Shown here: piece by piece, positions 25,291-59,794 of the stretch
Layout of the letters: each line of letters starts with the position of its first letter
Numbering within the stretch: position 1 is the first letter of the stretch
Source of the DNA: Mactromeris polynyma
Taxonomy: Eukaryota > Mollusca > Bivalvia > Venerida > Mactridae
Assembly: GCA_032209605.1 (NCBI GenBank)
Contig: JASFXZ010000043.1
Coordinates: forward strand, 1,660,819 to 1,724,818
Reading direction: 5' to 3'
Length of the DNA stretch: 64,000 nt
The notes under the pieces: generated by a model
Told to the model about the DNA's origin: nothing
Database searches by the model: none
Seen by the model: only the letters and a program-made list of their open reading frames with translations
Position numbers and translations under genes: made by a program

Positions 25291-25507
25291 ATCCCGCAAA
25301 TTAGCTATGCGTCCACAAGTATCGATCTAAGTGACAAGTCAAGATTCGAGTATTTCTCCAGGGTCGTTCCACCGGATTCATTTCAAGCAAGTGCTATGGT
25401 GGAAATTGCAGCATTATTCGGTTGGAACTATGTGAGCACCCTTGCTGACGACGGCAACTACGGCGAGAAGGGAGTAAGCGCATTTGAAGAAAAGGCAAAG
25501 AAATACG
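25291..25507 (+). CDS. mGluR-like exon A (ligand-binding domain, part 1)
   Basis: It begins in phase 0 after TTTTACAG with 'IPQISYASTSIDLSD', a strongly conserved mGluR block, and ends in phase 1 before GTAAGT. It encodes visible residues 1-72 plus one base. Thr9 (as Thr188 of mammalian mGluR1), Asp29 ('RVVPPD', as Asp208) and Tyr57 ('GNYGE', as Tyr236) are the conserved ligand contacts, and their spacing of 20 and 28 residues equals that of mGluR1. The open frame runs upstream into intron, but the homology starts exactly at the acceptor. The exon before it should end at a codon boundary. Confidence 0.96.
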
Positions 25508-32311: not shown

Positions 32312-32599
32312 GAATCTGTGTTGCACAATCTTTAAAAATCTCCAGGCTGGCAACCGATACGGAGTTTGACAAAATAGTAAGCGATTTGTTGTCCATGAAC
32401 AAAGCTAAGGCCGTGATCATGTTTGTGAACGAGGACAACTGTCGGAACCTGCTGGCAACACTGAGACGTCTCAACAGAACGACAGAGTTAACGTTCCTGG
32501 CTAGTGATAGTTGGGGCGCTAAGATTCATCCCGTATATGGACAAGAGATATTTGCCGAGGGAACGATCAGCATATTGCCTAAAAGAAAGATTGTGAAAG
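32312..32599 (+). CDS. mGluR-like exon B (ligand-binding domain, part 2)
   Basis: It follows TTACATTTCAG, completes a split Gly codon (GGA) and ends in phase 1 before GTATAA. It encodes visible residues 73-168 ('GICVAQSLKI…' through 'ILPKRKIVKG'). Blocks 'AVIMFVNEDN', 'LASDSWGAK' and 'AEGTISILPKR' are classic mGluR lobe-2 text. Asp138 in 'SDSWG' matches the amino-group contact Asp318 of mGluR1, with a near-identical offset from Tyr57 (81 versus 82). Lys143 after 'SDSWGA' sits where group I has Arg. Asn127 is in an N-R-T glycosylation sequon. Confidence 0.96.
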
Positions 32600-34944: not shown

Positions 34945-36350
34945 TGAAGTTCGGTCAGACGTTAAAATTCAAGAATTATACCAAAAAATTGTACTTGTGC
35001 AAGCTGATAAAGCTTCTAACAACACAGTCATTGTATGACGGTTTTATTATATGGAAGTCCTAAATAATGAACTTAACTGTACTGCAGCTTACAGTCCTAT
35101 TACATCGTCTGCAGATGATATAATTGACAGATACAGCTCAGAATTGTCTAAATTTAATGTAGAAGTCGCATACAAATGTAATAAGTTACCAACTATGTAT
35201 TGGTTACCTAAACTACACAAAACACCATATAAATCTAGATTCGTTGCTAATGCGAGCTTCACTACAACTACACAAACTTCTCACTGGTTGTTTTAACAGC
35301 TATTAAAGCTGAAGTTGTTAAATATTGCAATAAAACTTTTGAAAATTCCAGTATAAACCTTTACTGGGGCATAAAAAATTCTACAGAAGTTTTGAATAAA
35401 TTTCAATCTTTGCATTTTAGAGCAACACGTATCTCTACCTATGATTTCTCCACTCTTTATACTTCACTTCCTCATGATTTAATTGAAAAAACATTTGGTA
35501 GCAATCAACATGTATATTTGGCCTGCAATGATGAAAGGGCTTTTTTTACTTCTAATAATTACAAAAACTTTACTATCTGGACATGTGAGGATGTCTGTGA
35601 AGCTCTTAGTTTTATACTGAATAATATCTTTATTCAATTTGATAACTCAATGTACCAACAGAAAGTTGGTATTCCTATGGGAACTAACTGTGCTCCACTT
35701 ATAGCCGACTTATTCTTATTCTGTTATGAAAGAGACTTTATGTTATCCTTATACAAAGAAAATCAGATGGATGTAATTGAAGCTTTCAATAATACCTCCC
35801 GTTATTTAGATGATATTTTAAATATTGATATTGAGTTTTTCCCAACCATGATATATGATATATATCCAACAGAACTACACCTATCGAAAGCTAACACCTT
35901 GGATACACATGCCTCGTTTCTTGACTTGGACATTTCAATAGAAAATAGTTATTACTACTAAAATATATGATAAACGAGATGATTATGACTTTGAGATTAT
36001 AAATTTTCCCTGGCTTATTAGTGATATACCGAGAAATACAACATATGGCATATATATGTCTCAAACTTATAAGATATCTCAGGGCTAATACTAAACTAGA
36101 GGACTTTAATAAGCGTAACCTTATACTAACAGGTAAACTGCTAAAACAAGGCTATCTTTATCATAAATTATGTAAGACTTTTCGTAAGTTTTGCCATAAA
36201 TATACCGACATTAATTTAAAATATGGCACTAGTGTATAATCTATGTTAGAGACAGGAATTACTAAACCTAAATTTTATGGAGATCTATTATATAATATTC
36301 GCAAAATTCATAACAGTTGTTACTTTGATCAGTTATTTTTAATAGTTTTT
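34945..36350 (+). pseudogene. Penelope-like reverse transcriptase remnant
   Basis: Consecutive frames with shifts read '…VQADKASNNTVIV', then 'LPKLHKTPYKSRF', 'YDFSTLYTSLPH', 'GIPMGTNCAPL' and 'RYLDDILNID' (YLDD at 35803-35814), then 'YDKRDDYDFEIINFPWL', and finally 'KRNLILTGKLLKQGY'. The LPKLHK start block and YLDD box are those of a single-ORF RT lineage common in invertebrates that looks Penelope-like to me; it is unlike the FADD-bearing LINE at 12.5 kb. At least three frame breaks and a stop near 35035 make it dead. No GIY-YIG endonuclease was recognised downstream. It lies in the sense direction of the receptor, inside intron 2. Confidence 0.85.
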
Positions 36351-37059
36351 AAGTAAAATAATACTTGATAGATTTTCACACCTGTTTTTATTGCACGCCG
36401 GACACTAATGTTTTGAGACTAAATGAAGTTATATTTGTAAACCGTACTTGGTATGCAGGATATGACTGATCACAATGTCTTAGGGGATTATGTTCGGGAC
36501 TTTGTAGGCATTGACTTTTGCTCTGGAACTAACATGATGTGTTCCATGGAGTATCTTAAAACTATCAACCAGCCCATTTGGGATTGTGTTGTGTCGTGTA
36601 ATATATATTTTTTCGAATTTATGTTGGTGTTGTCCTTGTTTCTTGTTGTTTTGTGATGTTCTCTGTAACTACTTACTTAATTTTTTTCTCTTGTATATTT
36701 ATCAATGTATAAGGCACAGTCTTGTGTAAGTAACGTTCCCAGTGGCCGAGTATTCTATCTTTTTTATGACGTCATTAAACTTGTATGACGTCATAGATAT
36801 TTTATTATGCGCTACCAAGAAAACTTTTCTCTCTACAATGCAGTTTTATAACACATCTAAATATACAGTCGTATTTTGTGTTTTAGTTTTATTTAGTAGA
36901 CATATTTATTTTAGTTTTAAATTCCCTATCAGTAATATCTTAGAATTATTTAATTATTAACTACAATATCGAGTTGACCTTACTTTAAAATGCATTTTTA
37001 AATTTTAGGGTTATTTCACGTTCTTATGTTACTAGTTTAGTTACTGACTGAGGCTGCTT

Positions 37060-37645
37060 GCTCCTTCGTGCTGGATTAGTTACAGTGTCTGTTGTTATGT
37101 GCATGATGGTTGATTGCTTTTAATGATTAGTTACTGCCTACTTAGTCAATTTATGTATATATGTTGGAAATCAAGGACCATATAGCGATTAAGGGTGAGG
37201 TTAGCTAGCTGTTAACTCGATTTAAACCCCCAGTATTTTTTGCTGACAGTTCCAAGGCTGTAATTCGATATATGATTGTTGTTTCTGTTAGTGTAAAATT
37301 ATTGTTTTGTATTTCCCTTTCCCATATGCAATTCTGTCACTTTATACAGTGTTCAGATTGTTTCCTGCCCATTTTTGGCCTATTACGGCCAGTTGTCTTG
37401 ACTTGCCCTGTGATCTTTTCCATCCATTAATTCCCCCCTCCACCTCCCTTCACGGTCCACTTTGATTCTCCTAGTTATTCCTAGTGGTCTGCCAGGCTAT
37501 TCCTTTTGCCTCTGTTCCTTAATGTGTACCATTTGATCCCCTTAAGTGACTTATGTTTTGTGGACTGTTGTTTTTCCGGAGGTCTGCGTGGGGAGGCACT
37601 GTCTTGTGTATGTGGCGTTCCCTGTAGTTACGTATTCTCTCTGTT
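37060..37645 (+). repeat. Dispersed 3'-anchored repeat, longest copy (5)
   Basis: This is the only full-order plus-strand copy. Landmarks in order are 'GTTACTGCCTACTTAGTCAA', 'GGAAATCAAGGACCATATAG', 'GGTTAGCTAGCTGTTAACTC', 'CCCTGTGATCTTTTCCATCC', 'AGTGGTCTGCCAGGCTATTC', 'GGAGGTCTGCGTGGGGAGGC' and the end 'GGCGTTCCCTGTAGTTAC'. Minus-strand copies elsewhere are shorter pieces of this order. It begins about 700 bp after the Penelope-like RT, and an extra short piece (AAGGCACAGTCTTGTGTAAG) stands at 36711. Confidence 0.75.
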
Positions 37646-37929
37646 GTATAGTTATTGCACAAAGTAACTAATGGAAAAATACGGGTTACTTATTTTGGAA
37701 ATACAGTAGTAGATATGATAATTTGTTTACAAACAAGTAACTAGATATACACAGGGCAAGCAAATCCACAATTCAGCTATCTGCAGCCCCAGGCCTTCAG
37801 CACTAACAGCGCTTTGATTATCATTGATATAGTAAAAGAATGGTTTGATTGTCTACATCGAGTCCATTTTAAGTAGCCAAATCTCTTCGTATGATTGTTA
37901 CTAGTGGAAAACATATACGTTTTAGACTG

Positions 37930-38546
37930 CATTTACTTGCATTGTTTGATGTAAGGACAAAGATACCATGGAAGCATTCACATGCATTGTTTGGTGTAAG
38001 GAAAAGAGACCATGGTGGCATTCACTTGCATTGTTTGGTGTAAGGAAAAGAGGCCATGGTGGCATTTACTTGCATTGTTTGATGTAAGGACAAAGATACC
38101 ATGGAAGCATTCACATGCATTGTTTGGTGTAAGGAAAAGAGACCATGGTGGCATTCACTTGCATTGTTTGGTGTAAGGAAAAGAGTCCATGGTGGCATTC
38201 ACTTGCATTGTTTGGTGTAAGGACAAAGATACCATGGAAGCATTCACATGCATTGTTTGGTGTAAGGAAAAGAGACCATGGTGGCATTCACTTGCATTGT
38301 TTGGTGTAAGGAAAAGAGGCCATGGTGGCATTTACTTGCATTGTTTGATGTAAGGACAAAGATACCATGGAAGCATTCACATGCATTGTTTGGTGTAAGG
38401 AAAAGAGACCATGGTGGCATTCACTTGCATTGTTTGGTGTAAGGAAAAGAGTCCATGGTGGCATTCACTTTCATCATTTAATATAAGAGCAAGAGATCAT
38501 GGTGGCATTTACTTGAATTGTTTGATGTAAGGGCAAGAGACCCTTG
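37930..38546. repeat. 44/45-bp minisatellite with higher-order structure
   Basis: Fourteen units in line: A (45 bp, ends ACCATGGAAG), B (44 bp, CATTCACATGC, GAGACCATGG) and C (44 bp, GAGGCC or GAGTCC before ATGG). The order is A B C A B C' | A' B C A B C', then two decayed units. A boundaries fall at 37930, 38063, 38196 and 38329, exactly 133 bp apart. The C/C' alternation makes the true repeating block 266 bp, present twice (37930-38195, 38196-38461). Confidence 0.95.
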
Positions 38547-39849
38547 AGTCGATAATTGCTTATCTAATTTCATTAAAATCATGCAAAACACATTCATTGA
38601 GTAATAGTACATGCATAGTCTTAAATATCCGAGAATATTCGATGTGATTTTCCAGCACTATCAATTGCAGTCGATCCGGATTAATCAGGATTTGGCTGAT
38701 TACGAACGTGCCCATAAAGCCTTATTATGACAACAAGAAATGAGGAATGGTGTGGTATAACTTTGTGAATGAATTGTCCGTCACTACGGGCCGGTTATTC
38801 GCCCCCAAGTTGTTAAGCACTGGTATTTCCGTACAAAAGTGCATCGATCTCAATCAGGAAAGATGAAAGACGTCGAGAATATTTGTTCAGCAATGCAATT
38901 GACACATCTCTTCAATATTTAACAGCTGCACCAGCGTTATTTGGTCAAAGTTAACATAAACATGTCAGCAACATTTACCATTGCTGTGTCTATGTCATTG
39001 TGGCTGTAACTAATAATATCGGCTTCCAAACATGTTCCAAACAATGTTACGCGACAACATAAATGTAACTTATAGTAGTATTATACTCATTCTTTCTTCA
39101 ATGTTTACCTAAACAAACATAAACAGATACAATTTAGTTCATATTGGTAAAGGGGCATAACACATGTTATGTAATAGATATATGCACAAATTTTATTGTC
39201 AATGAAAATATTGTTTATATCGTAGAATATGAAAACATTTGCAACAAGCAAGACATTAAACTGCTTACGTCCTTCGAAGAAATTCGCTGCCACTGCTGCC
39301 ACCTCTTATATCAATCCCTGTTGTTCATCAAAATGATAAAATCCACCCATATTTGTCAAAATCCCTACTTTCTTTTTTTCTAAATTCGGCTACTTTCGAT
39401 TTAGATACACGTAATATCAAACTAACTGAAGTGCAATTTGGGTGGTTTGAATCTACCATGTAGCCATCTGAGAAGAGAAAAACATTTCATGTTGCTCTAA
39501 AACATCAATATATATGAAATATCGAAGAATATCCTCATAAATTAGTTCTTTGTATTTGTCCGAAATAAAGAAGTGCGTGATATTTTCAAATACAAAAATT
39601 GATGTTTCAACAAGCAGGGTTTGTCATAACGTGATATAACAAAGTTATTGGAACGTTTGTATAAAAGATGTTTAGCCAATCTGGCAGCAATACTAGTTGA
39701 AACCAGATACCTCTTTAAATGATATGGTACAAAACTGCAATTGAAACAAGCGGAGAAAAGATGGTAAGCAACGCGTAAATATAATGTACGTTTTAAAAAA
39801 AGGTTTAAAACTATCTAACAGTGCTTAATTGTCGAATCGGTGGTGTTAT

Positions 39850-40318
39850 TCTCGAGAAAAGGCTACCAGACTCGAGCAAAGGCTACCAGACTCGAGAAAA
39901 TGCTACCAGACTCGAGCAAAGGCTACCAGGCTCGGGAAAAGGCTAACATGCTTGGGAAAAGGCTACCAGGCTCGAGCAAAGGCTACCAGGCTCGAGCAAA
40001 GGCTACCAGGCTCGAGAAAAGGCTACCGACTCGAGAAAAGGCTACCAGGCTCGAGAAAAGGCTACCAGGCCCGAGAAAAAGCTACCAGGCTTGAGAAAAG
40101 GCTACCAGGCTCGAGCAAAAGCTACCAGGCTCGAGAAAGGCTACCAGGCCCGAGAAAAGGCTACAAGGCTTGAGAAAAGGCTACCAGGCTCGAGCAAACG
40201 CTACCAGGCTCGAGAAAGGCTACCAGGCCCGAGAAAAGGCTACAAGGCTTGAGAAAAAGCTACCGACTCGAGAAAAGGCTACCAGGCCCGAGAAATGGGT
40301 ATCAAGCTCAAGAAAGGG
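39850..40318. repeat. 20-bp minisatellite, about 23 units
   Basis: The unit is close to GGCTACCAGGCTCGAGAAAA, with variants CTCGAG / CCCGAG / CTTGAG and GAGAAAA / GAGCAAA. A block of about 80 bp (four units, one of them 19 bp) is itself repeated (about 40126 and 40206). Because the unit length is not a multiple of three, overlapping frames of 84 and 114 codons appear with Arg/Lys-rich repeats; these are artefacts. Confidence 0.95.
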
Positions 40319-41289
40319 CTTACATTCAATTGACCGCTTCTGATGTACCAACTGTAAAGATGTCAAATATAGCCAACAATTGTTTTCATTGAGAATCATA
40401 GATTTGTCAAGAAAACCTTTTGTATTTCCGCGCAAATCATTTTCCACTTTTACAGTGGGCGTACTGGCTGATACGTATTGTTGTCAGGTTTTTGTTACAC
40501 AAATATCTGAAAACGAATGTAACAATAATGCGTTTATAATGCGGAATGAGTAATCGCAGTGGTTACATATAATTGGGTTCCTTTTTGTGCTGCCGGGATG
40601 TTTGAGCAACAATCAAGGTAATGATGTTTTGGAGTTTGATCAATCTGGTGCCTCCTTTGCCAGAAAGCATAACTAATCCCGACTGATTGTTTTATTCCTT
40701 TCTGCCATATTGCAACATTTATGGTGTACATTGCTTCTGTGTTCGGGCTCTGAAACGAGTAAAGTGAGTGCGTTCATTTAGTATCTATGAGACCTACAAA
40801 AAATGACTTGTTTGGAATGATAGTAAAGCGTATTCGAAGAATGTTTAAAAACAAATCGACGATAGTAAATATTAGATTGGATGTCACCTGGTGTCATATT
40901 ATCTTTACCATGATTTATTTGGAAGTTCCCCTTAGCAAATGCTCATGTTTTACCTTCATTATAACAGAAATTGAACGGCCATGGTGGCCCTATATCGCTC
41001 ACCAGAGTTACATTGCCATGTTGGCATCAAGAGAGTCCAAGAGGATTTTCAATGATTTGACCTCGTGACCTAACTTATCTTGATTTTATTAAGTCAAAAT
41101 TGTTCACCAAATCTCATGTGTATAAAGTAAAAAATGTAACCTCTGGAGTGTTAACAATTGTTATACTATAATTGGACATAATGACCTACTTTTTGAAACC
41201 AGATGACCCAGTTTCATACTTGGCCTAGATTTCAATGAGACAAACACTCTGACGTTTTTATTTTAGTTTAGTTCTTACAACTTATACTA

Positions 41290-41455
41290 ATCACTCTCGA
41301 TGTCTGATTCCTGGCTACCAATCAGTACTCACACCGAATTTAGGAATAGTGGAGTTCATGATCAAACCCCGCGTATTACGTGGCTCGAACTCACGACCTT
41401 CGTATCAGGAGTCAGGCGCTCTACCCTCGACCACTGCGGTTTAGGTTATGTGGAA
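41290..41455 (-). mobile_element. tRNA-like SINE fragment, minus strand
   Basis: Read on the minus strand: GCAGTGGTCGAGGGTAGAGC (A-box-like), an anticodon-arm-like GACTCCTGATACGAAGG, GTGAGTTCGAGCC (B-box-like), then a body with 'TTCGGTGTGAGTACTG'. The loop resembles the CCT (Arg) loop of a common tRNA-SINE head, but the stem is degraded. Confidence 0.6.
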
Positions 41456-42657
41456 CATACCAATAAACATAAATCAATGGATTTCCTACAGTTTACATGC
41501 AAAACAATAACAATATTGTGCAAGGTTCACACCGCTACGATCCACGGGTAGGTTTTGTCGCATAACGAATAAGTTGCAATGCATATTCGTCTGAATCTCT
41601 TGAAACATGAAATGTCTCAAAAATATACTGAAAGACGTTTGATAATCTAAAAACTAGTTCAGGTGCGTGAGTGTGTTATAATCTTGTCGCAGCATATTCC
41701 TAGGAGACAATTAAATATATGAGTTTCTGATATATAATAGATCAATCAGTGTGTCGAGCAGATGCGGTATATTAGTTGAAGAAACGGTTGAAAATTGCAA
41801 ACTTATTAAATCTTGCTGTCATTCTGAAAGGAAAGTTTTGAATATTCCATTGATTTTGCCCTATACCCTGGGTTCCATGTGAATCCAAGAATACATACAC
41901 TAGTTCGGCGTACAATTGAACAATTGTAATAAATGCAGCTAATCTAGACACCTGACTTTCGAAAATATTTCCCGAATTCCGATCATTACAATGTTTCTCA
42001 AAACAGTTCCATGTTACTCTGGAATTTTCTCGGAAGAAAGAGGCTTATAACCCGCTGCGTATCGATTCAGTAGTTTATTTTACGCCATGACCAGACACCA
42101 TTTACTCAGTTCTTGAGATACTACTAAATTTTAGATGATCTTGGCTTCATTTAGGAGGAATAAAAGCGTGAATTAATTAAAGTAAAATATCACTGAAATG
42201 AGGGAGGAATGGGAAGAAACAAAGAACTAAGTTGCTTTCATGGTACACGAATGAAACCTATTCTTTCATATTAACAAGGGCTGCAGTCTCCAGTTTTATG
42301 TCAAGTGATATAATTCTTCATTAGACCATATGACTTATTATTGTGTCTTAAATCAAACGTTCCGTTATTTTAGTACGTGTTTGAGCATGTTTTTTGGTTT
42401 AAACAGTTCCTCTTCCTGTCTTCTGCTATAATAATGAAGATTGAATATCGCAAGGTATATTTTCAGATGTAACCGTTTTTACCTAACGCAAACTCCATTG
42501 TTATATGTCGCCTTCGTACATAACAACATACTCAAACTAAACTTTGTCACTTGTCATCCTCCGATCGCTCGACAAAAGTCTCAAATAAATCCAAGATATA
42601 CTAAACCCCAATGGACAGAAAATGCTTAGAAGTTACTTTCGAGACTACCACAAAAAT

Positions 42658-42975
42658 GACGTCAGGTCGCTGTGGTGTAGTGGTTAGCATAACGGACCGG
42701 CAATCCGTAGACCTTGGTTCGATTCCCGGTAGCGCCATTGACCGATTTTTCGTGTTTCTCAAACTTGACTTTATTTCACTACTTACTACAGGTGGTGTTA
42801 AGTGCTGTGTGGCGGATGTAAAAATTCGCCCGTACTTCCTCCAAAGTGTAGTTTACCTTAATCATAAATTTATATATGATAAATTTACACGAAAATGACG
42901 TCAGGTCGCTGTGGTGTAGTGGTTAGCATAACGGACCGGCAATCCGTAAACCAGGGTTCGATTCCCGGTACCGAT
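42658..42975 (+). repeat. Two tRNA-like copies, 239 bp apart
   Basis: tRNA-like segments at about 42666-42737 and 42905-42970 share GACGTCAGGTCGCTGTGGTG, then GGTTAGCATAACGG, and a perfect five-pair anticodon stem ACGGA/TCCGT with loop CCGGCAA (would read GGC, Ala). A T-arm-like GGTTCGATTCCCGG follows. Position 33 is C instead of the near-universal U, and the acceptor stem has a mismatch. The second copy lacks a proper 3' acceptor strand. Both are followed by 'CCGATTTTTCGTGTTT' and 'CAAACTTGACTTTAT', so this is a repeat family with a tRNA head rather than plain tRNA genes. Confidence 0.75.
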
Positions 42976-44198
42976 TTTTCGTGTTTATCAAACTTGACTT
43001 TATGTCTTTAGCGTCTCATTGCCATCATCGTCAACCGGATGGTCTACTCGAAGTACCGCCATACTCTTCGTGTCAAGAAAATAGTACGTGTAAAGTCCTC
43101 TGATTTCATTATTAAGTTGATGAGTATAATGGCTGATTTGATATATATCAATTGTGGAATGGTGGGGGTCTTAAAATAAACAGATTTTCTGGATTATTTG
43201 TGGGTTTTTTGGCAAATGAGTTGCTTCAGTCCTTAGATTATGTGCATGCTTTGATGATCTAGTCTATGTATACCACTGTTTGGTTGACAATAATACTTTC
43301 ACAAACTTTCTTATTCTAACATTAATGTTCCATATGTAGTTTTCAAATTGTTCGAATACTTATTGGAAATTTGTTTCGAGACAGTTCTTGCTTGTTCTTC
43401 AAAACGCAAATTATACAACTAAGAGGTAAGAACAGATGATTCTATGTGAAATGAGGAAGACTGTATCTACCCCTGATTTCGTACTGACAATCATTTTGTC
43501 AAGATTGAAGGGCACTGGTGGAATTGAAAATCAATAAGAATGAATACTGCAGATGTAATAGACGGTGTATTGATTTTTGTTGCCACAAACATTAATGCAT
43601 CCTTATCTTAGTTTGTAAACAATATGCTTTTTCCAAAAATTCTAAGTTATATCAATGCACCACTCTCAATATTGGTTCCGTTTAATTGAATAATGTTGAA
43701 TATCAAGGGGCTCCATTAATGCCATGTTATTTATCAACTCTATTTCTATAACTTCCAAACACATAATAATGACATATTTGAATGATTATATATATTACAT
43801 TGTATGTGACTTGTAACAGCAAAGATCGGAGATTATACAATAACAATTAACGTAATAATGTATTCATTTTGTACATTTTTACCTAAACATTCATGCAAAA
43901 TATAGTCCGTAATGTTAAAGCAGCAATAACTATACTCATACGCAAAAGAAAGTGTGCACTTTTTATTTTTTTATTATTTTAATTCTACAAGGTATAAAAA
44001 TGTCAAGGAATATAATACTATCGGTCGTTACGGTTTATCGCCACAACGAACAGTCAGTCAAACTATGGCTAGTTATTACGAATTGCGATTTTGCAGGATT
44101 TCCACGTGTACAAGTGACCAAACCTATATTCTCTACTTTCTTTCACACATGTATAGTGCGAATACCACCGTAGATTTTGAAAATTTATAACAGCGAAT

Positions 44199-45000
44199 AT
44201 GCCACGACTATCAGAACGTCAGCGTATTGACGCCTTAATGATGCTGGTCAGAGGTGACTCAGGCGCTGCAGTTTCACGGGCACTTAATTGCTATAGAAAC
44301 ACTATAATCAAGTAACGTGATAGGTTTATGCAAACTGGTACTGTTGCCGACCGTCCCCGATCTGGCAGGCCACGCGAGACTGGCGTCAGATTGGACCGTC
44401 ACGCCTCAGCTTCAGTGAGCCAATACGGTATAATCCGAGACACGGTTCTGAGACGACTTCGTCAATGTGGTATGCCTATTTGACCGAGACGTACCTATAT
44501 TGGCCCTACACTGTCCCAACGTCATCGCACAGCGCGTTTGAACTGGGCACATCTTCGTTATCGATGACGAAGGGTGCAGGGGAACAGAATCGTCTTTAAT
44601 GACAAATCCCGTTTTAACTAGGGCCATTACGACGGTAGGGTTAGAGTGTACAGACGTAGGGGAGAGCGATTTGTGGACACATGTGTCCTTCAGAGTAACA
44701 TATTTTGTGGGGGCAGCGTCATGGTGTGGGGAGGGGTCATGTCAAACAGAAAGATGGATATGGTCTTCGTTCAGAGCAACCTTAATACACAGGGTTACCT
44801 TAATCAAGTGCAGATACATGTAGCCGTCCCTTAATACCCACGATCCAGCAACACTGAAGCATGACAATGCAAGGCCACACGGCAAGGCTTACGCAGCAAT
44901 TTCTAAGTTATTAGATGGAATTGCGGTCATACCAGATATTAATGCAACATTGGCATCATTTAATGCGCGAACTATATGCGGAACGGACTATATGTAGCAC
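44199..45000 (+). pseudogene. Tc1-like transposase remnant
   Basis: From ATG 44199 the sequence reads 'MPRLSERQRIDALMMLVRGD', an HTH with 'TGTVADRPRSGRPRET', then 'RRTYIGPTLSQRHRTARLNW', 'RIVFNDKSRF' (first catalytic Asp block), 'DGRVRVYRRRGERF', 'GGSVMVWGGV' and 'LKHDNARPH' (second catalytic Asp block). These are the ordered blocks of Tc1 DD34E transposases. Several in-frame stops (for example after 'NTIIK' and after 'FN') and loss of the final Glu block make it inactive. Terminal repeats were not found. Confidence 0.92.
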
Positions 45001-45937
45001 TACAGAGCTTATCGTGTAAAAACATGTGATGCTAGTAATTTGTAAACTGTACAATTTAGCGATAGTTATAGTTAGCGATAGTTATCTTCGTCATCGCTGA
45101 GATAGAGTGGCTCCTATCTGTACGCGGCTTAATATCATTCACTATCAAATCATAAACTGCGCCAATCAAATATCGTGATGATCTGTACTTTCTATACGGA
45201 CGGCCATTTTTACGCAAAACGTAGAGATTTACGGTCGGTATTTTGTAACGTAACTATACGCTCTAACTTACCTACGTACGCAAATATTAGTGAAACGCAA
45301 TTACGTAGAAATTTTGTATGAACGCAAAAACTTACGAAAATCTTTGATTTACGCAAGCGTAAGTATGTTAGTAAAACGGTACCCAGATGAAAATAACTAA
45401 CCAACGATTAGTTTTGATAGTTATTATTAGATAATACATAATAAAAAGCTAGTGAAATGTGAAATTTACTTATATCTAGTTTAGCAAATATTTCATGACG
45501 GTGGTTATCTGCATACCAAAATAAACTTGGACGCGCTTAGTACGTTAGAGCTTGGTACGTTCTGTTTTGGTTACCGATCTACTACAACCTTGCGTAAGAT
45601 GTACGCGAACTTTACTTTAGTAAATTTGTCATCAAATGCAAATATCTATTGATACTGTTTTTTGATCGGGTAATAAAGTGGACCGTAGTAGATGCTGCAA
45701 ACGTTACAGCCAAAAATGGGCTGTAATCATGATTATTTTAAGATTACTTTGTGTTTTTATTCCGTTTTCTACCACGTAGACATTTAAATAATTGGATATA
45801 TAGTTAAATAGTTAAAGGTATCAACGCATTGATTGACACTTCTATCGTTTAAAAACCAAGTATACACTTATTTCTCACTTATTCATGGCTGAAGCTGTAA
45901 TGTTGTAGCTCTAGGGTTTAACTTATAATGGTCTATG

Positions 45938-46040
45938 ACTGTTGAGCGGTTATTTAGCGCTGGAAAGTTCTTTCGACCTGAAAGGTGTCGACTCAGCGAT
46001 AAGACATTTGAAATGCTAATGATGATTAAATGCAATAAGT
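45938..46040 (+). pseudogene. hAT transposase C-terminal fragment (plus strand)
   Basis: About 33 codons read 'VERLFSAGKFFRPERCRLSD' followed by 'KTFEMLMMIKCNK'. This matches the dimerisation region (hATC) of hAT transposases, where 'ERLFS…AG' and a closing 'IKCN' are typical. Nothing else of this protein is recognisable. AT-rich text with TAATCGATTAC repeats (46196-46340) follows, similar to hAT element ends. Confidence 0.7.
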
Positions 46041-46388
46041 TAACTAAAATTTTCGTCATTAAGTGTAACACAGAAACTGTGTATAGAACTGACACTGACA
46101 TTGAGAATTGAAAATAATGTTATAAGTTCATTCATTGTACTGTTAAAATAATAAATAAGATTCATGGATCTGTGTTTCATCCTGTCATTTACAAAAGGAA
46201 GTAATCATTACTTTCATTGAAATTAATCATAATTAATCGATTACTTGCAAATTATGCAGTAATCATGAAGTAATCGATTACTGGAAAAAAGCAGAATAAT
46301 CATAATTTAATTGATAACTTTTTCAAGTAATCGACCCCATGTCTGCTCGTGTAAGCAAATGTGAACGTTTTCTGTTCAAGCTATATAG

Positions 46389-46650
46389 CTACACCCTGAA
46401 AAGTAACGCACGGCGGCGGTCCTTCTGTTGTGCGAAGATGTCTATTACCCATTGTATGTCTATTTGCCTTTCACGGTAAACATTGAGGCAGGACAGCAGG
46501 TCGGTTGAGCGAATATATTTTTTTAACCTCCTCATTGTTGAGAATGAACGCTCCGCCGTAGTAGCGGTCGACACCGGCATAACCAGCAGCACTAACTTAC
46601 ACATTCGTATGTTTGGGAATGCATATTTGGATGCTACAGACAATTAAGCT
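46389..46650 (-). pseudogene. hAT transposase C-terminal fragment (minus strand)
   Basis: The frame 46389-46643 on the minus strand includes 'LVLLVMPVSTATTAERSFST' and 'MRRLKKYIRSTDLLSCL'. The hATC dimerisation core 'P.S.A..ERSFS..RR.K.Y.RS' is clear. It is a different hAT subfamily (FAM200/ZMYM6-like wording) from the plus-strand piece 350 bp away. The upstream catalytic part is absent. Confidence 0.82.
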
Positions 46651-47429
46651 CTTCTCAAGAGAATCGTATTCTGCGGATGGATCCAGCTACCACTTAGTCT
46701 TGTGCTGCCACCGTTGGCATTCGCGTGAAAATTCAGCTGCATCACAGGTTGTGTCTGCCTGGTTTTCACGGAAAACTATCTCGACAGTTAATTACACAAC
46801 CTAGTAATATATATTTAGGTAAGGTTAGAATAATTTAATATATATACGTGCTAAATCATTAGATGAAAGTGTACATTATATTTAATTGTAAATTACCGAT
46901 TAACCATTAACATTATGTCGGAAAATAGCTCATTGAGCTAATGTTATTTGTTAATATATACCCGATTTTATTAAAGATTCTTGCGTCTTGTATCATTTAG
47001 CGTGCTTTCCACATTTTACCCACGCTAAATAAGTTTCAACTATTGACAAATACTGACTTAAAACTGTTTGATTGTTTTTATCTCACGAGATCGCATTTCG
47101 ACGTTATACATGTAATAATGGTTTAGAACAAGTCACCATTCGCTTCAACGTATTATCAGGAAGAAACACACTTATATGACATTGTATACATAGATAGATA
47201 TATACTTTTATTCCTCCATAAGTGAAGAGATTAACACATATACAGATAAGTACACAAGATATACACACACATCGAAGATATGATATGCACGAACATCACT
47301 AGATCATTATGATACTATATAGATGGATATAATGAATATTTTAACATTTCAAGTAATCATTAACAAAAACAACATCATCAAAATTGCACAACATATCAGT
47401 ATACTGTATACATGTCATTAACCAATATC

Positions 47430-47555
47430 TATATATGCATACATATAAATACATATATACATGAACACACATATACACATATATATATATACACACACAC
47501 ATATATATATACACACACACACATATATATACACACACATACACATACATATGTA
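47430..47555. repeat. AC/AT dinucleotide microsatellite
   Basis: Alternating ATATAT and ACACAC runs cover 47460-47555. The open frames of 69 and 92 codons here are artefacts of the repeat. Confidence 0.9.
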
Positions 47556-47754
47556 TATACAGAAAAAAACATAGAAACTTTCCTTATTTTGCTGTTCAAA
47601 TGTTTACTTTATTTGCATCATTTAGCGTTTATATATTCTCTTTGTATATATCAAGGTACAGAGGTTCAATATTGTCGTTTGACATTTTGAAACTTCCGGC
47701 TATCTAAATATAATTTGGATATATTCGGTATCTATCAACATTGCACTCATAAAT

Positions 47755-47965
47755 TTCAGCTTCAAAAATTCGCAAATTCAACTTCATAAATCCACCATTT
47801 CAAATGCACAAATTCGCAAATTAAACTAATCGAACCCACGATTATAAATTCATGAATTCACGATTTCAACCTCTTGAATTCATTATTTCAATTCCATGAA
47901 TTCTTGAAGTTAAAATCGAAATCGTGAATTCATGAAAATGAAATCCCGAATTCATGAAGTTTAAC
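47755..47965. repeat. GAATTC/TTCATGAA-rich inverted-repeat block
   Basis: TTCATGAATTCACGATTTCA at about 47848 is inverted as AAATCGTGAATTCATGAA at about 47920. Further GAATTC, TCATGAATT and AAATTCGCAAATT motifs surround these. Confidence 0.6.
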
Positions 47966-48066
47966 TGGTTAATTATCATGACAGAAAATAGAAAGCATGG
48001 CAACACCGGTAAGAAACCAGTACATGCTATCCAATTTACGACGAAATTTTTTACGCACTTTTTTCT

Positions 48067-48440
48067 GTGGAGAATGGTTTGCCACAGTCCTGTGTCCCAC
48101 ATATAGTAATAGCATTCCCTAGTCGCGATGTTTGTGCGAGATTTGAGAAATTTAGGAAGATAATCGTGGATGCCATCACCGACGTTGAAAAGCTCGATGC
48201 TACAACACAGATACAGACACATCTGTATAAAGCACAAGCTGAGCGAGAATTGTATTTGTTCATACTCAAGAAAGACTAAAGAAGTTATACAGTCAACACT
48301 GCCCAATACCGCACCAACAATCACGCACTACGCATACGATTTTGCACAAAATGTTACACTACCACACCACTCTCAACAGATGGGCTCTCTCTACTTACTA
48401 ACACTCAAAACGTTAAGCGTGATAACCTTGCTTACATAAC
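48067..48440 (+). pseudogene. Fragment of an unidentified multi-copy-type protein, frameshifted
   Basis: Two overlapping plus frames look like one protein broken near 48268. The first (48067-48279) ends '…YKAQAERELYLFILKK', and the second continues 'TKEVIQSTLP…HYAYDFAQNVTLPHHSQQ'. The 'YDFAQ…LPHH…Q.G.LY' wording resembles a domain I recall from large families of uncharacterised, probably transposon-linked proteins in molluscs. That is recollection, not a match I can verify. It lies 435 bp before receptor exon C and has no splice relation to it. Confidence 0.35.
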
Positions 48441-48874
48441 ACAGTTTTAGGGATAGAATCTTCACTTTAATACATTTTACCCGGGAGAGACACACATACC
48501 CGTATAATCAGTGCGACCATACGTGCGTTGATATGCGCAACATGAGGCCTGCTAATCCCCCCAGATGAAGAATAAGTTTAAAATTATTAGTCGATAGTTT
48601 GAAAACGCCGTCACGTCAATGTCTCGACGTCGTGTAAATATTTTGTTACTAGCGTACTGGTTGTGTTCTTATTCGTGTTTAACCAATTTATACTCGTCAG
48701 AAATTCATGAAATTGGTTTTAATAAATTTCTAATGTATTGAATTTTATTAAAAATAAATAACCTAAAAATGTTGAATTTGACCACTAGGGTCGGAAATCT
48801 CACGACACTGCTCATATATAGTACGTGTTTGAAACATAAATAATGTACAAAGTGACTTGTTTCATCTATTGCAG

Positions 48875-49000
48875 AGTTTGATGATTATTTCCTCAAGTTA
48901 AATATCAGCCATAAAAAGATTGATCCATGGTACAGTGAGTATTGGGAGTCAATATTTGAATGCAGCTTCGACAGGAAGCCAAATACCACGCAATGCACCG
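48875..49000 (+). CDS. mGluR-like exon C (ligand-binding domain, part 3)
   Basis: A 126-bp exon, phase 1 to phase 1, between CTATTGCAG and GTAAGA. It encodes visible residues 169-210: 'EFDDYFLKL', 'PWYSEYWESIFEC' and 'PNTTQCTG'. It matches the mGluR stretch 'F..YF..L……NPWF.EFW...F.C', and its two cysteines correspond to a conserved disulphide pair. There are N-glycosylation sequons at N-I-S and N-T-T. Confidence 0.95.
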
Positions 49001-50881: not shown

Positions 50882-51088
50882 GTCGTGAAGACATTCGTGC
50901 GTTTAATGACGAGCATTATGAACAAGAAGGCTTGGTGCAGTTTGTTATAGATTCGGTGTATGCTCTGGCGCATGCTATAGACAGTCTTAGAAGAATCAAA
51001 TGTCCTGCAGATGCTGTCAATTGTCTCCAAGAAAGTTATCTGAATGGCGAAGATGTGTTAAACTATATTAGAAACGTTTCCTTTTTAG
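50882..51088 (+). CDS. mGluR-like exon D (ligand-binding domain, part 4; Lys to Leu)
   Basis: Phase 1 to phase 1, from CTATACACAG to GTACAC, covering visible residues 211-279. 'YEQEGLVQFVIDSVYALAHA' aligns directly with mGluR4 wording 'QEGKVQFVIDAVYAMGHA'. The lysine that holds the distal carboxylate of glutamate (Lys409 mGluR1, Lys377 mGluR2, Lys405 mGluR4) is Leu228, codon TTG at 50932-50934. Its offset from Asp138 is 90 residues (91 in mGluR1), which supports the alignment. 'CPADAVNC' is the conserved cysteine pair. The exon ends 'YIRNVSFL' plus the split Gly codon. Confidence 0.96.
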
Positions 51089-51464: not shown

Positions 51465-52120
51465 TCAAATAGATATCTCAGCTCAATATGATATCTCAGC
51501 TCAATATGATATCTCAGCTCAATATGATATCTCAGCTCAATATGATATCTCAGCTCAATATGATATCTCAGCTCAATATGATATCTCAGCTCAATATGAT
51601 ATCTCAGCTCAAATAGATATCTCAGCTCAATATGATATCTCAGCTCAATATGATATCTCAGCTCAAATAGATATCTCAGCTCAATATGATATCTCAGCTC
51701 AATATGATATCTCAGCTCAATATGATATCTCAGCTCAAATAGATATCTCAGCTCAATATGATATCTCAGCTCAATATGATATCTCAGCTCAATATGATAT
51801 CTCAGCTCAAATAGATATCTCAGCTCAATATGATATCTCAGCTCAATATGATATCTCAGCTCAATATGATATCTCAGCTCAATATGATATCTCAGCTCAA
51901 TATGATATCTCAGCTCAATATGATATCTCAGCTCAATATGATATCTCAGCTCAATGTGATATCTCAGCTCAATATGATATCTCAGCTCAATATGATATCT
52001 CAGCTCAATATGATATCTCAGCTCAATATGATATCTCAGCTCAATATGATATCTCAGCTCAATATGATATCTCAGCTCAATATGATATCTCAGCTCAATA
52101 TGATATCTCAGCTCAATATG
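51465..52120. repeat. 18-bp minisatellite, about 36 units
   Basis: The unit is GATATCTCAGCTCAATAT, almost without error. Variant units with CAAATA instead of CAATAT stand at 51467, 51611, 51665, 51737 and 51809, with spacings of 144, 54, 72 and 72 bp, all multiples of 18; the last two show a four-unit higher-order period. A single TGT variant is at 51954. As 18 is a multiple of three, one frame stays open for 102 codons with a repeated hexapeptide MISQLN; it has no coding support. Confidence 0.97.
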
Positions 52121-52978
52121 AGATTTTGCTCAAAATAAAGACTTGGAGTGAGACAAATATCATTTAAATCTCTTGAAATTGTTTTGAGAAAAAAAATTCA
52201 TCATCTTTTTTTTTGTAAAACAGTTTTTGAGTCTGACCTCTGATGAGGAAAATCTCAACGACACTTTAATGACTGAAGCATTTTTCGTGAGTTATGAAAA
52301 TGTGTTTATTTCTTCACATTAATTGCTGGTATAAATCAAGTTCTGGACAAAATGTTACGATATTGGGAGAAGAATTTCGAAACTAAATCAGATGAACACG
52401 TTGTTGTGTCCGAGAGAATCCAAATGACATAATGGCGTGATGACGTATGAGGTCCTCTTGCTGATAATAAACATTAATCAAAGAGCAAACTTCTTGTATT
52501 TTTAGAGATGTAATACCTAATTTGGCTTAGATTTATGGGAACTTTCCATATTGTACACGTGAGTGATATCATATTTCCAAATGACACATAAATCTTTCTA
52601 AATTGAAACTATCATCTCCAAATGGTTACCTAGCGTCTTGTCATGAGTGAAATGAAATTGAGCAATTCTGATAGAATTTATTACGCACTGCCATGACAAC
52701 AAAATGGCGTTTAATGTATGCATTCAGCATTCACTAGATAACGAAAGCTTAATATCTCATTTCTTCATTTTTGTTAATCTATCAATATAGCCTGGACTTC
52801 TTTATTCGTAAACACTGTTTCCCAATCCAGTTCTTGTTCAGTTCGGTCGAATTATCATTTTAAATGTGAAAGCAAAGTAGACAGTATCTCAAACACTTTG
52901 ACCTGCCTATTTGACTGCGAAATTTACGACACATTTGTGGTATATTTATTCCCTAACAGGAGAATGTAACGTGTTTAG

Positions 52979-53886: not shown

Positions 53887-54013
53887 GTATTGGTGGTGAT
53901 GACGTTAAGTTTGACAGTAAAGGGGACGGCTTAGGGAGATACGACATTTTTCAATATCAGCGGGTTGAAGGAAATATTTATGAATATGTTCCAGTTGGAG
54001 AATGGACAGACAG
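53887..54013 (+). CDS. mGluR-like exon E (end of ligand-binding domain)
   Basis: 127 bp, phase 1 in and phase 2 out, visible residues 280-321 plus two bases: 'GIGGDDVKFDSKGDGLGRYD', then 'FQYQRVEGNIYEYVPVGEWT'. It aligns with mGluR 'F…GDAPGRYDI.QYQ…G.W'. The donor is AG|GCGAGT. Using GC at 54014-54015 joins AG + A into Arg and opens the next exon in the right frame. The nearest GT (54018) would shift the frame into a stop. Confidence 0.94.
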
Positions 54014-54601
54014 GCGAGTTTTACTTATTATAGACGTACGGATACCAACAGTGTCGTAATACACAATAATGTTTAATAAACATAAGAGCATTTAGTGTGT
54101 CATTTTTCTATGAAATAATTAGTTTTGGAAAATTAAAACATTCACGATTGCTTTTTTGTACAAATGATTTATTCACACTCTATAGTCATCCCCAAATCTC
54201 ATTTCACTTACTGCCTACATCAACGTAATGCTACTGAAAAGCATCAAATTATAATAGTCACGTGTATTCTATGTCTGGTATCTCTTATTTTCGTTCATGA
54301 ACAGAAATGAGAACTACACGTTTTATAATAACCTAATCCATTATATCGATGCCAGTTCTCATAGACTATAGAATAACAAATTCCATAGTTATATTTCACT
54401 TTCATTCTTATTTGCAACAATTTCAAGCAATTGGTTACATTAATTTCCCACAAACGACCATTTATAAGATAAATGCACTTAAATTAGGCGACTAAAATTT
54501 AAATATGTTGCCTTGGGCGTAACGATAACATCGCTTGATTTGAGAGCAGCGTTTTCTGTGGTTTCCTGAATTTGTCGAAACTGTTGAATTATATTTTCCA
54601 G
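54014..54601 (+). other. Receptor intron 5, GC-AG type (588 bp)
   Basis: Donor GCGAGT, acceptor ATATTTTCCAG. Nothing else was recognised inside. Confidence 0.88.
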
Positions 54602-55529
54602 ATTGGTTATTTTCAACGATACTCTAAAATTCCGTGGGAGTGACAACCCGCCTCGATCAGTATGCAGTGAAGAATGTCCATTTGGTTACGTTAAAAATAA
54701 CACAGTCGAAAGTGACACATGTTGTTGGGTTTGCATTCGATGCAGAGAAAATCAAATGTTGAAAAATGAATTTACGTGCCAAGACTGTCCGGATGGATAC
54801 ACGCCTAATCAAAATCTGACGTCATGCATTCCACTTCCGGTATTGCATCTCACATGGGACTCGCTTTGGGTTTTACTTCCGGTGTCGGTTTCAACACTCG
54901 GCATTTTCGCTGCGGGATATGTTTTCTATGTATTCATCAAGTACAATAATACTCCACTGATAATGGCGTCAGGAAGAGAACTTTGTTATGTACTTCTCAT
55001 TGGAATTTTGCTCTCGTATGGAACTACTTTTATCCTACTTGCAAAACCGACAATCATTTTGTGCACTATTAAAAGATTCATACTCGGAATCTCACTGTGT
55101 CTAATATACGCTTCGGTACTTATAAAAACAAACCGGATTTACCGGATTTTCAACAGAGGCGTTAAAGCCATGGTGAAGAGACCAAGTTATACAAGTCCGA
55201 AATCTCAAATATTTATATGTATGTGTTTAGTATCAGTACAGGTTGTAGGTGGACTTACATGGATTGGCTTTGAGACGCCACAGACAATGTATGTAAAGCA
55301 TTATACTGATGTTCTAGTGTTGACCTGTAAGGCCAGTCAGATAGCTATCTTACTATCTCTAGTCTATAATATGTTGCTCATTATTCTGTGTACTGTGTTC
55401 GGATTTATGACGAGAAAGATTCCACAGAACTTTAATGAAGCCAAATACATAGCATTCACAATGTACAGCACGTGTATTGTATGGCTGGCATTTATTCCCA
55501 TCTACTTTGGTGCAAATCATGATTTTAAA
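54602..55529 (+). CDS. mGluR-like exon F (Cys-rich domain and TM1-TM6)
   Basis: A 928-bp exon, phase 2 in and phase 0 out before GTAAGT, visible residues 322-631. The cysteine-rich domain has nine Cys between 'SVCSEEC' (343) and 'LTSC' (397), including the 'TCCWVC' block. Membrane helices lie at about 409-433, 449-468, 476-497, 525-544, 567-590 and 603-625. Class C landmarks are present: 'SGRELCYVLL' before TM2, 'KTNRIYRIF' after TM3, 'NFNEAKYIAFTMY' and 'CIVWLAFIPIYFG' in TM6. The cysteines at 'IILCTIKR' and 'VLTCKAS' would form the usual TM3 to extracellular loop 2 disulphide. This exon alone is enough to assign the family. Confidence 0.98.
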
Positions 55530-55627
55530 GTAAGTATATATACTGAACTATAATCCAATAGATGTATGTTAACATATTTAAGCACAAAACTTCACAATAA
55601 TGTCATGGCTAATTACTTTATGGGAAA

Positions 55628-56429: not shown

Positions 56430-57345
56430 TTAGTATTCTGCAAACTTCGCACATAGGTTTACAGAAAATATCAACACGGAACAGGTCGATTTACTTACTG
56501 ATCAATTAAGCTCTGCACCATGTTCCTCGCAAACAATCGAATATGTAACCAGCAAAGTCTCAGACATATTCCGCGAAGCAGCCGATAGTAGCTTCCCTGG
56601 AAGTACAAGAACACTTAATAACAACAAGTATACAAACAACAATTTAAGACTGCAAAATGCTAGCAAAAACTATAAAAGAACTATGAACTTTTACATAAAA
56701 AAGCATAAACAAGCTAACTAGTCTAAACTTGGAAATTTTTTAATAGCCTTATGTCAAAGAAACCTCTTCACCCTCCATACAATAATGTTTATCAACATTT
56801 TAAACAGATTTACGGAAACAATGTTGAGGACCAGGCATTTGATAACGAAATCCGTCTTGCGCAAGAGTCAAACGCTTGCCTTAATTAGCTAGGCGGAGAT
56901 TATCAAATGCATATCAACCCTTCAAAACTCAAAAGCATCGAGCCCTTTTGACAATATTATCAACGAATACATAAGTCCACAAAGGATATGGCTCTCCAAT
57001 TTTACCTCCACCCTTTAAAGCCATTTTAGACACTGGTTTTATACCAAAATCCTGTCTGGAAGGAATAATATTCCCTATATAAAAAAGTAAAGGTGATCCT
57101 AAAAGGACCCAAACAATCACAATTCTAAGTTGTTTAGGAAAACTCTTTACTTCTATCCTTAATCAAAGGTTAACACATTTTTTGGAAGAAAATAATATAC
57201 TTGATGAAAACCAAGCTGGTTTCAGGAAGGGTTCATGTTCTGGTCACATATTTACATTACACTCACTTATTGAAATTGCTAAAAAAAGAAAGCAAAAACT
57301 TTTTTGTGCCTTCATTGATTTCTCACGTTTTAATAATGTATCATT
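56430..57345 (+). pseudogene. Decayed LINE RT fragment (second family)
   Basis: In shifting frames: linker text 'NFYIKKHKQAN', then a 'SPFDNIINEYI' block, 'PIYKK.GDPKRTQTITILSC', 'LFTSILNQRLTHFLEENNIL', 'DENQAGFRKGSCSGHIFTL' and 'LFCAFIDFSRFNNV'. These are RT fingers and the first catalytic block; the text then stops near 57345 before the catalytic DD box. Many stops and shifts show it is old. The wording differs from the 12.5 kb LINE, so it is a separate family. Confidence 0.82.
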
Positions 57346-58207
57346 CGAGTCACTGCCGATGCCTCCATCTCCTGTGACTCATATATGCGGCGGTCACGTA
57401 TATGCGGTCATATATGCGGCGGCCGCTCATCGTGCGGATATCAATGCCCTCTAATTTATTTTTCAATATGTGTATAGATACATTATTATAAAAACATCTG
57501 CGTATTTATTTGACTTATAACTAGTTTCTGCTTCCACATTCACAAAAATGTACTCGTGCATAAAAATAATTCTCTCATTTAATATGCTCTACTTAACGTC
57601 TTTGCTGCGATATAAACCGTTGCAATTCAGATGTGTAGCTGTATGGTAACCTAGAATGCTTGAGCTACAAAATTGTTTGCCTTTATTATTATTCTTATTA
57701 TTAATGTTATTACTTTTGACAATGTTGTAAATGCTCATATCTATAATTATCTCATTTTGTTTTAAATTCTATTCTTCAAACTATATACTGTTCCCCCTCT
57801 CATCAATCCATCCCTTAATGGTTTTGTTACCTACTTTAATCAAAGCACAAAAGTGCTGTGGGACGGTACCATTCGTCTCTGTAGCCAAGCTGGCAACTCG
57901 TTGCATACACGTTTCCGTTTTGTAACTAAACAGTTTTATAATATCAAAGTATGTGTAAATAGGTAAGATGGTTTGCATGAAATATGAAATAAAACTAAAA
58001 CATAAGACAGAAATGCGAAAAAGAAAAAAAAAATATTGAAAAATAGTAAACATTTTTTCCAAGAGTTCTTCAATCCGACTTGTTCTAGATATGCTAGATT
58101 TTCAAACCGAAATAAAAGAAAATGGTCAGTAATCATGGTAGAACCTTAAAATTGTAAAACAAGTGAAATGTTTGCCAGTACTAAACATATATAGATCCAA
58201 GTGTCGC

Positions 58208-59377: not shown

Positions 59378-59794
59378 ATCGAGATTACATCACTGTGTAT
59401 GTGTGTCAGTATCAGCGCAACTGTTGCTCTTGTGTGCCTCTTCGGCCCAAAGGTGTACATTGTCATATTCCAGCCCCATAAAAACGTGCGACAAGGGGCA
59501 ACACCTTCACTCCAATCAGCCAGCAGGAGTTTTCCAAAACCATTTATTCCAAATCCTAACAATCAAACGGCTATATGTTCAAAGCCAACATTAACATCGT
59601 ATGAAAGCAATAATGGACATGTGAGTGGTGTTACTAAAGTTGTTAATAATGTACACACCACAACTAGTACCATCGAGACAATAAATGACATGTTTTCGGA
59701 TAGTTTAGAGGAGGACGAAGACGACTTTTGTGATGAGACATCATTCATTCCTAAACCAACTGAAGATAAAGCAACATCGACATCAGAACAATGA
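59378..59794 (+). CDS. mGluR-like exon G (TM7 and C-terminal tail)
   Basis: Phase 0 from TTGTTTTACAG, visible residues 632-769, stop TGA at 59792-59794. It begins 'IEITSLCMCVSISATVALVC' (TM7), then 'GPKVYIVIFQPHKNVRQ', the conserved class C end of TM7 with the PKxY motif. The ~110-residue tail is rich in Ser, Thr and Asn and has an acidic run 'DSLEEDEDDFCDE' near 741-753. I see no Homer-type PPxxF motif and no standard PDZ-binding end (it closes TSEQ). Confidence 0.95.
   Translation: MEITSLCMCVSISATVALVCLFGPKVYIVIFQPHKNVRQGATPSLQSASRSFPKPFIPNPNNQTAICSKPTLTSYESNNGHVSGVTKVVNNVHTTTSTIETINDMFSDSLEEDEDDFCDETSFIPKPTEDKATSTSEQ

What the first reader, a model, noticed from the sequence alone, without database searches (positions are those of the whole stretch)
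50882..51088. mGluR-like receptor has Leu in place of the glutamate-binding Lys
Seen: 'QEGLVQFVID', where mGluRs have 'QEGKVQFVID' or 'QDSKMGFVIN'. The α-amino-acid contacts Thr9, Asp29, Tyr57 and Asp138 are all kept, with spacing like mGluR1. Known: that lysine binds the distal carboxylate of glutamate in mammalian mGluRs. Insect mXR-type receptors keep the α contacts, lose the distal ones and do not respond to glutamate. Inference: this gene encodes an mXR-like or otherwise re-tuned amino-acid receptor rather than a glutamate receptor. This is the strongest biological lead in the window.
Basis: partly seen in the sequence, partly recalled or inferred. Interest (0 to 1): 0.75.

Follow-up and report, generated by a model that had tools for sequence, protein, structure and literature searches.

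The report
Bivalve class III mGluR with Leu409

Summary
In detail: codon 50932-50934 is TTG (Leu) where human mGluR1 has Lys409, in a clean exon of an intact seven-exon 3' gene part (769 aa; 5' exons lie outside the window). The mXR-like reading is not supported. The gene is a bivalve ortholog (81% to Mya arenaria) of class III mGluRs: best PDB matches are mGluR8 and mGluR4, and a tree joins it to class III (SH-aLRT 99). Leu is old: of 155 class III-like proteins 116 lack the Lys (112 Leu) and 38 keep it; every named non-Lys row is protostome or hemichordate, every named Lys row vertebrate, amphioxus or echinoderm. Of 120 class II-like proteins 120 keep Lys. Loss of both Arg78 and Lys409, the class IV/mXR hallmark, is not met by the relatives: of the non-Lys rows with the site filled, 91 of 92 keep Arg78, 84 of 90 a basic residue at 74, and 114 of 114 Lys at 323. 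One paper says, second-hand, that mGluR1 tolerates loss of Lys409 (another sentence of it says otherwise). Most likely a Gi/o-coupled receptor that still senses glutamate; a switched ligand is possible and testable.

The parts
25291..25507 (+). exon a of the visible part: ligand-binding domain, IPQISYAST...KKYG (Thr188, Asp208, Tyr236 equivalents); starts in phase 0, so more exons lie upstream
   Evidence: splice sites and frame; tblastn with Mya P0001, E 6e-37
32312..32599 (+). exon b: ligand-binding domain, ...ASDSWGAK... (Asp318 equivalent and Lys at position 323 = mGluR4 Lys317, number recalled)
   Evidence: tblastn E 3e-44
48875..49000 (+). exon c: ligand-binding domain EFDDYFLKL...QCTG
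   Evidence: tblastn E 7e-16
50882..51088 (+). exon d: ligand-binding domain with QEGLVQFVID; Leu codon TTG at 50932-50934 at the mGluR1 Lys409 position
   Evidence: tblastn E 5e-24
53887..54013 (+). exon e: end of ligand-binding domain; donor is GC (ACAG|GCGAGT), a GC-AG intron
   Evidence: frame with the next exon and homology decide the site; tblastn E 9e-18
54602..55529 (+). exon f: cysteine-rich domain (NCD3G) and most of the seven-helix domain
   Evidence: PDB hits mGluR3, 7, 2, 8 (ORF 54588-55553); Pfam NCD3G and 7tm_3; tblastn E 0
59378..59794 (+). exon g: last helix and cytoplasmic tail, stop codon TGA at 59792-59794
   Evidence: tblastn E 2e-58

Best explanation
A functional class III metabotropic glutamate receptor (pro-ortholog of vertebrate mGluR4/6/7/8) of a bivalve. 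Shown: open exons with good splice sites, class III kinship, Leu at 409, kept alpha contacts and Lys323, and in the relatives kept Arg78 and mostly Lys74. Inferred: it works like other Gi/o-coupled mGluR dimers, the ligand-binding domain closing on an amino acid; the distal carboxylate is held by Arg78 with Lys74 and Lys323, while Leu409 supplies a non-polar wall in place of the fourth basic residue. I expect L-glutamate (or a close acidic amino acid) to remain an agonist, perhaps with changed potency and weaker response to phosphono agonists such as L-AP4. The Lys-to-hydrophobic change lies near the base of the protostomes, once together with the hemichordates or twice apart from them, and Leu has mostly been held since.
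For: PDB ranking of the ligand domain: mGluR8 325 bits, mGluR4 324, mGluR7 310, mGluR6 309, against mGluR3 268, mGluR1 258, mGluR2 248, mGluR5 229. Tree of 49 rows: class III branch 99, window with Mya and Dreissena 100, the Lys/non-Lys split needs one change. Non-Lys class III-like rows keep Arg78 in 91 of 92 filled, Lys or Arg at 74 in 84 of 90, Lys323 in 114 of 114. Control: Lys409 in 120 of 120 best hits of Drosophila mGluRA (class II-like). In 16 hand-picked same-species pairs (15 species) the class II member has Lys and the class III member does not, 16 of 16. PMC9750798 (Discussion) says that mutation of any key contact 'except for K409' severely hinders glutamate binding, citing Hara 1993 and Sato 2003, and that R78L costs 1,000-fold in potency.
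Against: Leu makes up 97% of the 117 non-Lys rows, more than a merely tolerated loss predicts. [quoted passage not shown] I did not see the primary mutagenesis papers, and they concern mGluR1, not class III. The window's own residues 74 and 78 are not visible. I saw no functional test of a protostome class III receptor. The tree is a quick one, with site 409 left in, two long rows (human mGluR1, Aplysia) and no class IV sequence.
Confidence: 0.6

Rival explanations
1. Same class III lineage, but re-tuned: Leu409 marks a pocket that prefers another amino acid, and glutamate is weak or inert.
For: Leu in 113 of 117 non-Lys rows including the window, in molluscs, an annelid, flatworms, arthropods and two of three hemichordates, suggests selection for Leu itself; DmXR shows that an mGluR can switch ligand by changes in the distal pocket (PMC2695807, passages); one sentence of PMC9750798 says that change of any of seven contacts is damaging.
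Against: DmXR/class IV lost both Arg78 and Lys409; here Arg78 and two further basic residues are kept in most relatives. Another sentence of PMC9750798 names Lys409 as the exception among damaging mutations, and the paper reports that SjGRM7, with six of seven contacts changed, answers glutamate and none of the four other ligands tried.
Confidence: 0.3
2. It is an mXR / class IV receptor.
For: Leu at 409 fits 'non-polar or acidic' at that site; class IV is reported in all bilaterian phyla investigated except vertebrates (PMC6307864, passages). No class IV sequence was placed on my tree.
Against: Arg78 kept in 91 of 92 filled non-Lys relatives; nearest vertebrate class is III by a wide margin; class III branch 99; no row labelled Drosophila in the top 120 of a fly-ortholog search.
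Confidence: 0.07
3. Artefact or decayed copy: the Leu is a sequencing error, or the gene is a pseudogene.
For: One assembly only; 5' exons unseen.
Against: At least two base changes needed; all seven exons open with usable splice sites; 84% identity over the 7TM exon to Mya; same Leu in orthologs.
Confidence: 0.02

Closest known systems
Mya arenaria 'metabotropic glutamate receptor 8-like' isoform X3 (P0001)
   Same: 81% identity over the whole visible part, same Leu; its protein matches all seven exons
   Different: another species; its N-terminus is known and reads KREKGIQR, that is Lys74 and Arg78
Vertebrate class III mGluRs (mGluR4, 6, 7, 8)
   Same: closest solved structures, class III tree branch, Lys323 (mGluR4 Lys317, recalled), alpha contacts
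   Different: the vertebrate rows seen keep Lys at 409; here it is Leu
Insect mXR (DmXR, mangetout) / class IV mGluRs
   Same: a replaced Lys409 contact; alpha contacts kept (as described in PMC2695807 and PMC6307864)
   Different: class IV is said to replace Arg78 too; the relatives of this gene keep it and group with class III
Protostome class II mGluRs (DmGluRA, Ylistrum P0272)
   Same: same domain plan; the Ylistrum protein aligns to all seven exons
   Different: Lys409 in 120 of 120 rows; Arg74 in 117 of 117 filled and Gln323 in 118 of 118 filled instead of Lys74 and Lys323

Membership tests
metabotropic glutamate receptor family (class C GPCR) | Venus flytrap ligand domain, nine-cysteine domain, seven-helix domain | tested here: met
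   Pfam ANF_receptor, NCD3G, 7tm_3 in one 769-aa model; flytrap match starts at profile position 75 because 5' exons are absent
class III mGluR | nearest to vertebrate mGluR4/6/7/8 rather than mGluR1/5 or mGluR2/3 | tested here: met
   bit scores; tree branch 99, with 49 of 278 aligned rows used
class III mGluR | Lys at mGluR1 position 323 (mGluR4 Lys317, recalled) | tested here: met
   window has ASDSWGAK; 114 of 114 filled non-Lys relatives
class III mGluR | Lys at position 74 and Arg at 78 | tested here: inconclusive
   not visible in the window; in non-Lys relatives Arg78 in 91 of 92 filled, Lys or Arg at 74 in 84 of 90 filled
class III mGluR | Lys409 as in vertebrate members | tested here: not met
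   Leu; the non-Lys state is shared by the named protostome and hemichordate members, so I treat it as a lineage trait and not an exclusion
class III mGluR | activated by glutamate, Gi/o coupled | not testable with these tools
   needs expression; class-level inference only
class IV mGluR / mXR | Lys409 replaced by a non-polar or acidic residue | tested here: met
   Leu at 50932-50934
class IV mGluR / mXR | Arg78 replaced by a non-polar or acidic residue | tested here: not met
   tested in relatives only: Arg in 91 of 92 filled non-Lys rows (the other is His), Mya ortholog included
class IV mGluR / mXR | sister to classes I-III, groups with DmXR | tested here: inconclusive
   no class IV sequence was in hand; indirect: class III nesting, no row labelled Drosophila in the top 120

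The most novel reading that the evidence does not exclude
The whole protostome and hemichordate branch of class III mGluRs is tuned to something other than glutamate, or to glutamate in a distinct way through Leu409: a second widespread re-tuned mGluR branch beside class IV, hidden under 'mGluR7/8-like' labels.
Probability: 0.25. Interest if true: 0.7.

Novelty: new member of a known kind. Interest (0 to 1): 0.4.

Why it matters
Many invertebrate proteins of this branch carry labels such as 'metabotropic glutamate receptor 7-like' or '8-like', which suggests the vertebrate ligand pocket. All named protostome members seen here lack one of the two residues usually said to grip glutamate's side chain, while the class II receptors seen keep it. 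I saw no test of their ligand in the listings and passages from ten literature searches; an expression assay on one clam and one insect member would open the question for molluscs and arthropods.

Tried and rejected
Reading the gene as mXR: rejected on Arg78 in the relatives, class III kinship. Finding the 5' exons in the window: motif scans and tblastn with three N-termini (best E 0.12) found none, so they most likely lie upstream of base 1. A joined exon model with the donor one base later (exon end 54014) gave a frameshift; the GC donor after 54013 gives one frame. In one search the column labelled K409 was off by one; searches use the right column. I had no class IV protein: three protein searches list the 120 best of 1649, 1837 and 1804 hits, and in none did I identify a class IV member. 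AU test of the species-tree alternative (nine deuterostome class III rows together, quick tree): p 0.165, not rejected, so one or two losses of Lys cannot be told apart. Rows: one search aligns all 275 proteins returned plus window, human GRM1 and GRM3; one search counts the 116 non-Lys proteins of P0001-P0155 and 16 same-species pairs picked by hand (further pairs are in the lists and were not counted); the tree uses 49 of 278 rows, picked by hand for spread, with site 409 left in; one search left out P0110 and P0120 (class II-like echinoderm) and P0128 (gap at 409). P0079 (Ile) looks like a mispredicted exon. Taxon names come from database labels; 19 of the 275 rows have none.

Full report
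What is there. The window holds the 3' part of one gene on the + strand: exons 25291-25507, 32312-32599, 48875-49000, 50882-51088, 53887-54013, 54602-55529 and 59378-59794 (stop). They join in frame to 769 residues. Of the six introns in the model five are GT-AG and the one after 54013 is GC-AG. Pfam finds the flytrap domain, the nine-cysteine domain and the seven-helix domain. The flytrap match begins at profile position 75, and no N-terminal exon was found in the window, so the first part of the ligand domain, with positions 74 and 78, most likely lies outside.

Where it comes from. The best protein match is Mya arenaria 'mGluR8-like' at 81%, then Dreissena polymorpha at 76%; the host is therefore most likely a bivalve near these two (inference from kinship; the species was not identified).

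The observation. The codon at 50932-50934 is TTG, Leu, aligned with Lys409 of human mGluR1. The alpha-group contacts Thr188, Asp208, Tyr236 and Asp318 are present.

Is it a local oddity? No. Among the 155 proteins listed by the first two searches, site 409 is Leu in 112, Val in 2, Ala in 1, Ile in 1, Lys in 38 and a gap in 1. In the first 120 the 19 Lys rows are 14 vertebrate, one amphioxus and four echinoderm proteins; the 19 further Lys rows come, where the named ones are fishes and three have no name. Every named non-Lys row is a mollusc, annelid, nemertean, flatworm, arthropod or hemichordate; a few have no name. As a control I took the 120 best hits of Drosophila mGluRA: Lys in 120 of 120. 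In 16 hand-picked class II/class III pairs from 15 species (Limulus twice; scallop, annelid, nemertean, chelicerates, myriapod, barnacle, insects) the class II member has Lys and the class III member does not, 16 of 16.

Which class. The ligand domain scores best against mGluR8 and mGluR4 and clearly lower against mGluR3, 1, 2 and 5. A maximum-likelihood tree of 49 rows, drawn with human mGluR1 as outgroup, joins the window gene and its relatives to the vertebrate class III receptors with SH-aLRT 99, apart from class II. It is a quick tree with two long rows (human mGluR1, Aplysia) and site 409 left in. The Lys/non-Lys label needs one change on it; the branch that unites hemichordates with protostomes has only 82, and a tree with the nine deuterostome class III rows held together is not rejected (p-AU 0.165).

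Not mXR. Ramos-Vicente and colleagues (PMC6307864; [quoted passage not shown] Here Arg78 is kept in 91 of 92 filled non-Lys relatives, a basic residue at 74 in 84 of 90, and Lys323 in 114 of 114. A search with the fly Condylostylus ortholog lists no row labelled Drosophila in the best 120, though it goes down to vertebrate mGluR8 (7991 candidates were scored). I could not place a class IV sequence on the tree, so this rests on residues of relatives and on class III kinship.

What Leu409 should do. PMC9750798 (passages seen) says in its Discussion, citing Hara 1993 and Sato 2003, that mutating any key contact except Lys409 severely hinders glutamate binding, and, citing Jensen 2000, that R78L lowers glutamate potency 1,000-fold. 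[quoted passage not shown] I did not see the primary papers. The same paper reports a flatworm receptor with six of seven contacts changed that answers glutamate and none of the four other ligands tried. Position 74 matters in mGluR7 (N74K; PMC6895203, passages). Taken together, a pocket with Arg78, Lys74 and Lys323 but Leu409 most likely still takes glutamate. Against this stands the strong conservation of Leu (97% of 117 non-Lys rows), which suggests that Leu does something of its own, such as shaping potency or letting in another side chain. A column comparison between non-Lys and Lys class III rows (each at least 85% uniform) shows, among contact sites 74, 78, 165, 186, 188, 208, 236, 318, 323 and 409, a difference only at 409; the neighbouring sites 189, 291 and 295 also differ and may matter.

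What is known in print. Ten paper searches gave, in the listings and passages that I saw, no test of a protostome class III receptor and no mention of this lineage-wide change; figures and supplements were not available, so the alignment figure of PMC6307864 may already show it. That homologs of DmXR are so far found only in insects is stated in PMC2695807 (2009) and again in PMC10815649 (2024) (passages), while PMC6307864 (2018) reports the class in all bilaterian phyla investigated except vertebrates.

Verdict. New member of a known kind, interest 0.4, with a neat open question about the ligand of protostome class III receptors.

Noticed in passing
51468-52121: Array of about 36 copies of an 18-base unit (AATATGATATCTCAGCTC, 97% matches) in the intron after the Leu exon.
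   Followed up: no
37929-38542: Tandem array with a 44-base unit and a 133-base higher-order unit (94% matches) inside the long intron 32600-48874.
   Followed up: no
39851-40320: Tandem array with a 20-base unit and a 79-base higher-order unit in the same intron.
   Followed up: no
938-1502: Near-perfect tandem duplication of a 276-base unit, 2.0 copies at 99%.
   Followed up: no
57083-57454: Piece of a reverse transcriptase (PF00078, E 1.7e-7) on the + strand inside the last intron of the receptor gene.
   Followed up: partly
44316-44483: Open frame that looks by eye like a Tc1-type transposase piece; no Pfam match.
   Followed up: partly
54014: GC-AG intron donor (ACAG|GCGAGT) in the receptor gene.
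   Followed up: yes
P0110 and P0120 (Acanthaster, Diadema): Two echinoderm proteins that the window query found group with class II on the tree and have the class II pattern Arg74, Gln323, Lys409.
   Followed up: partly
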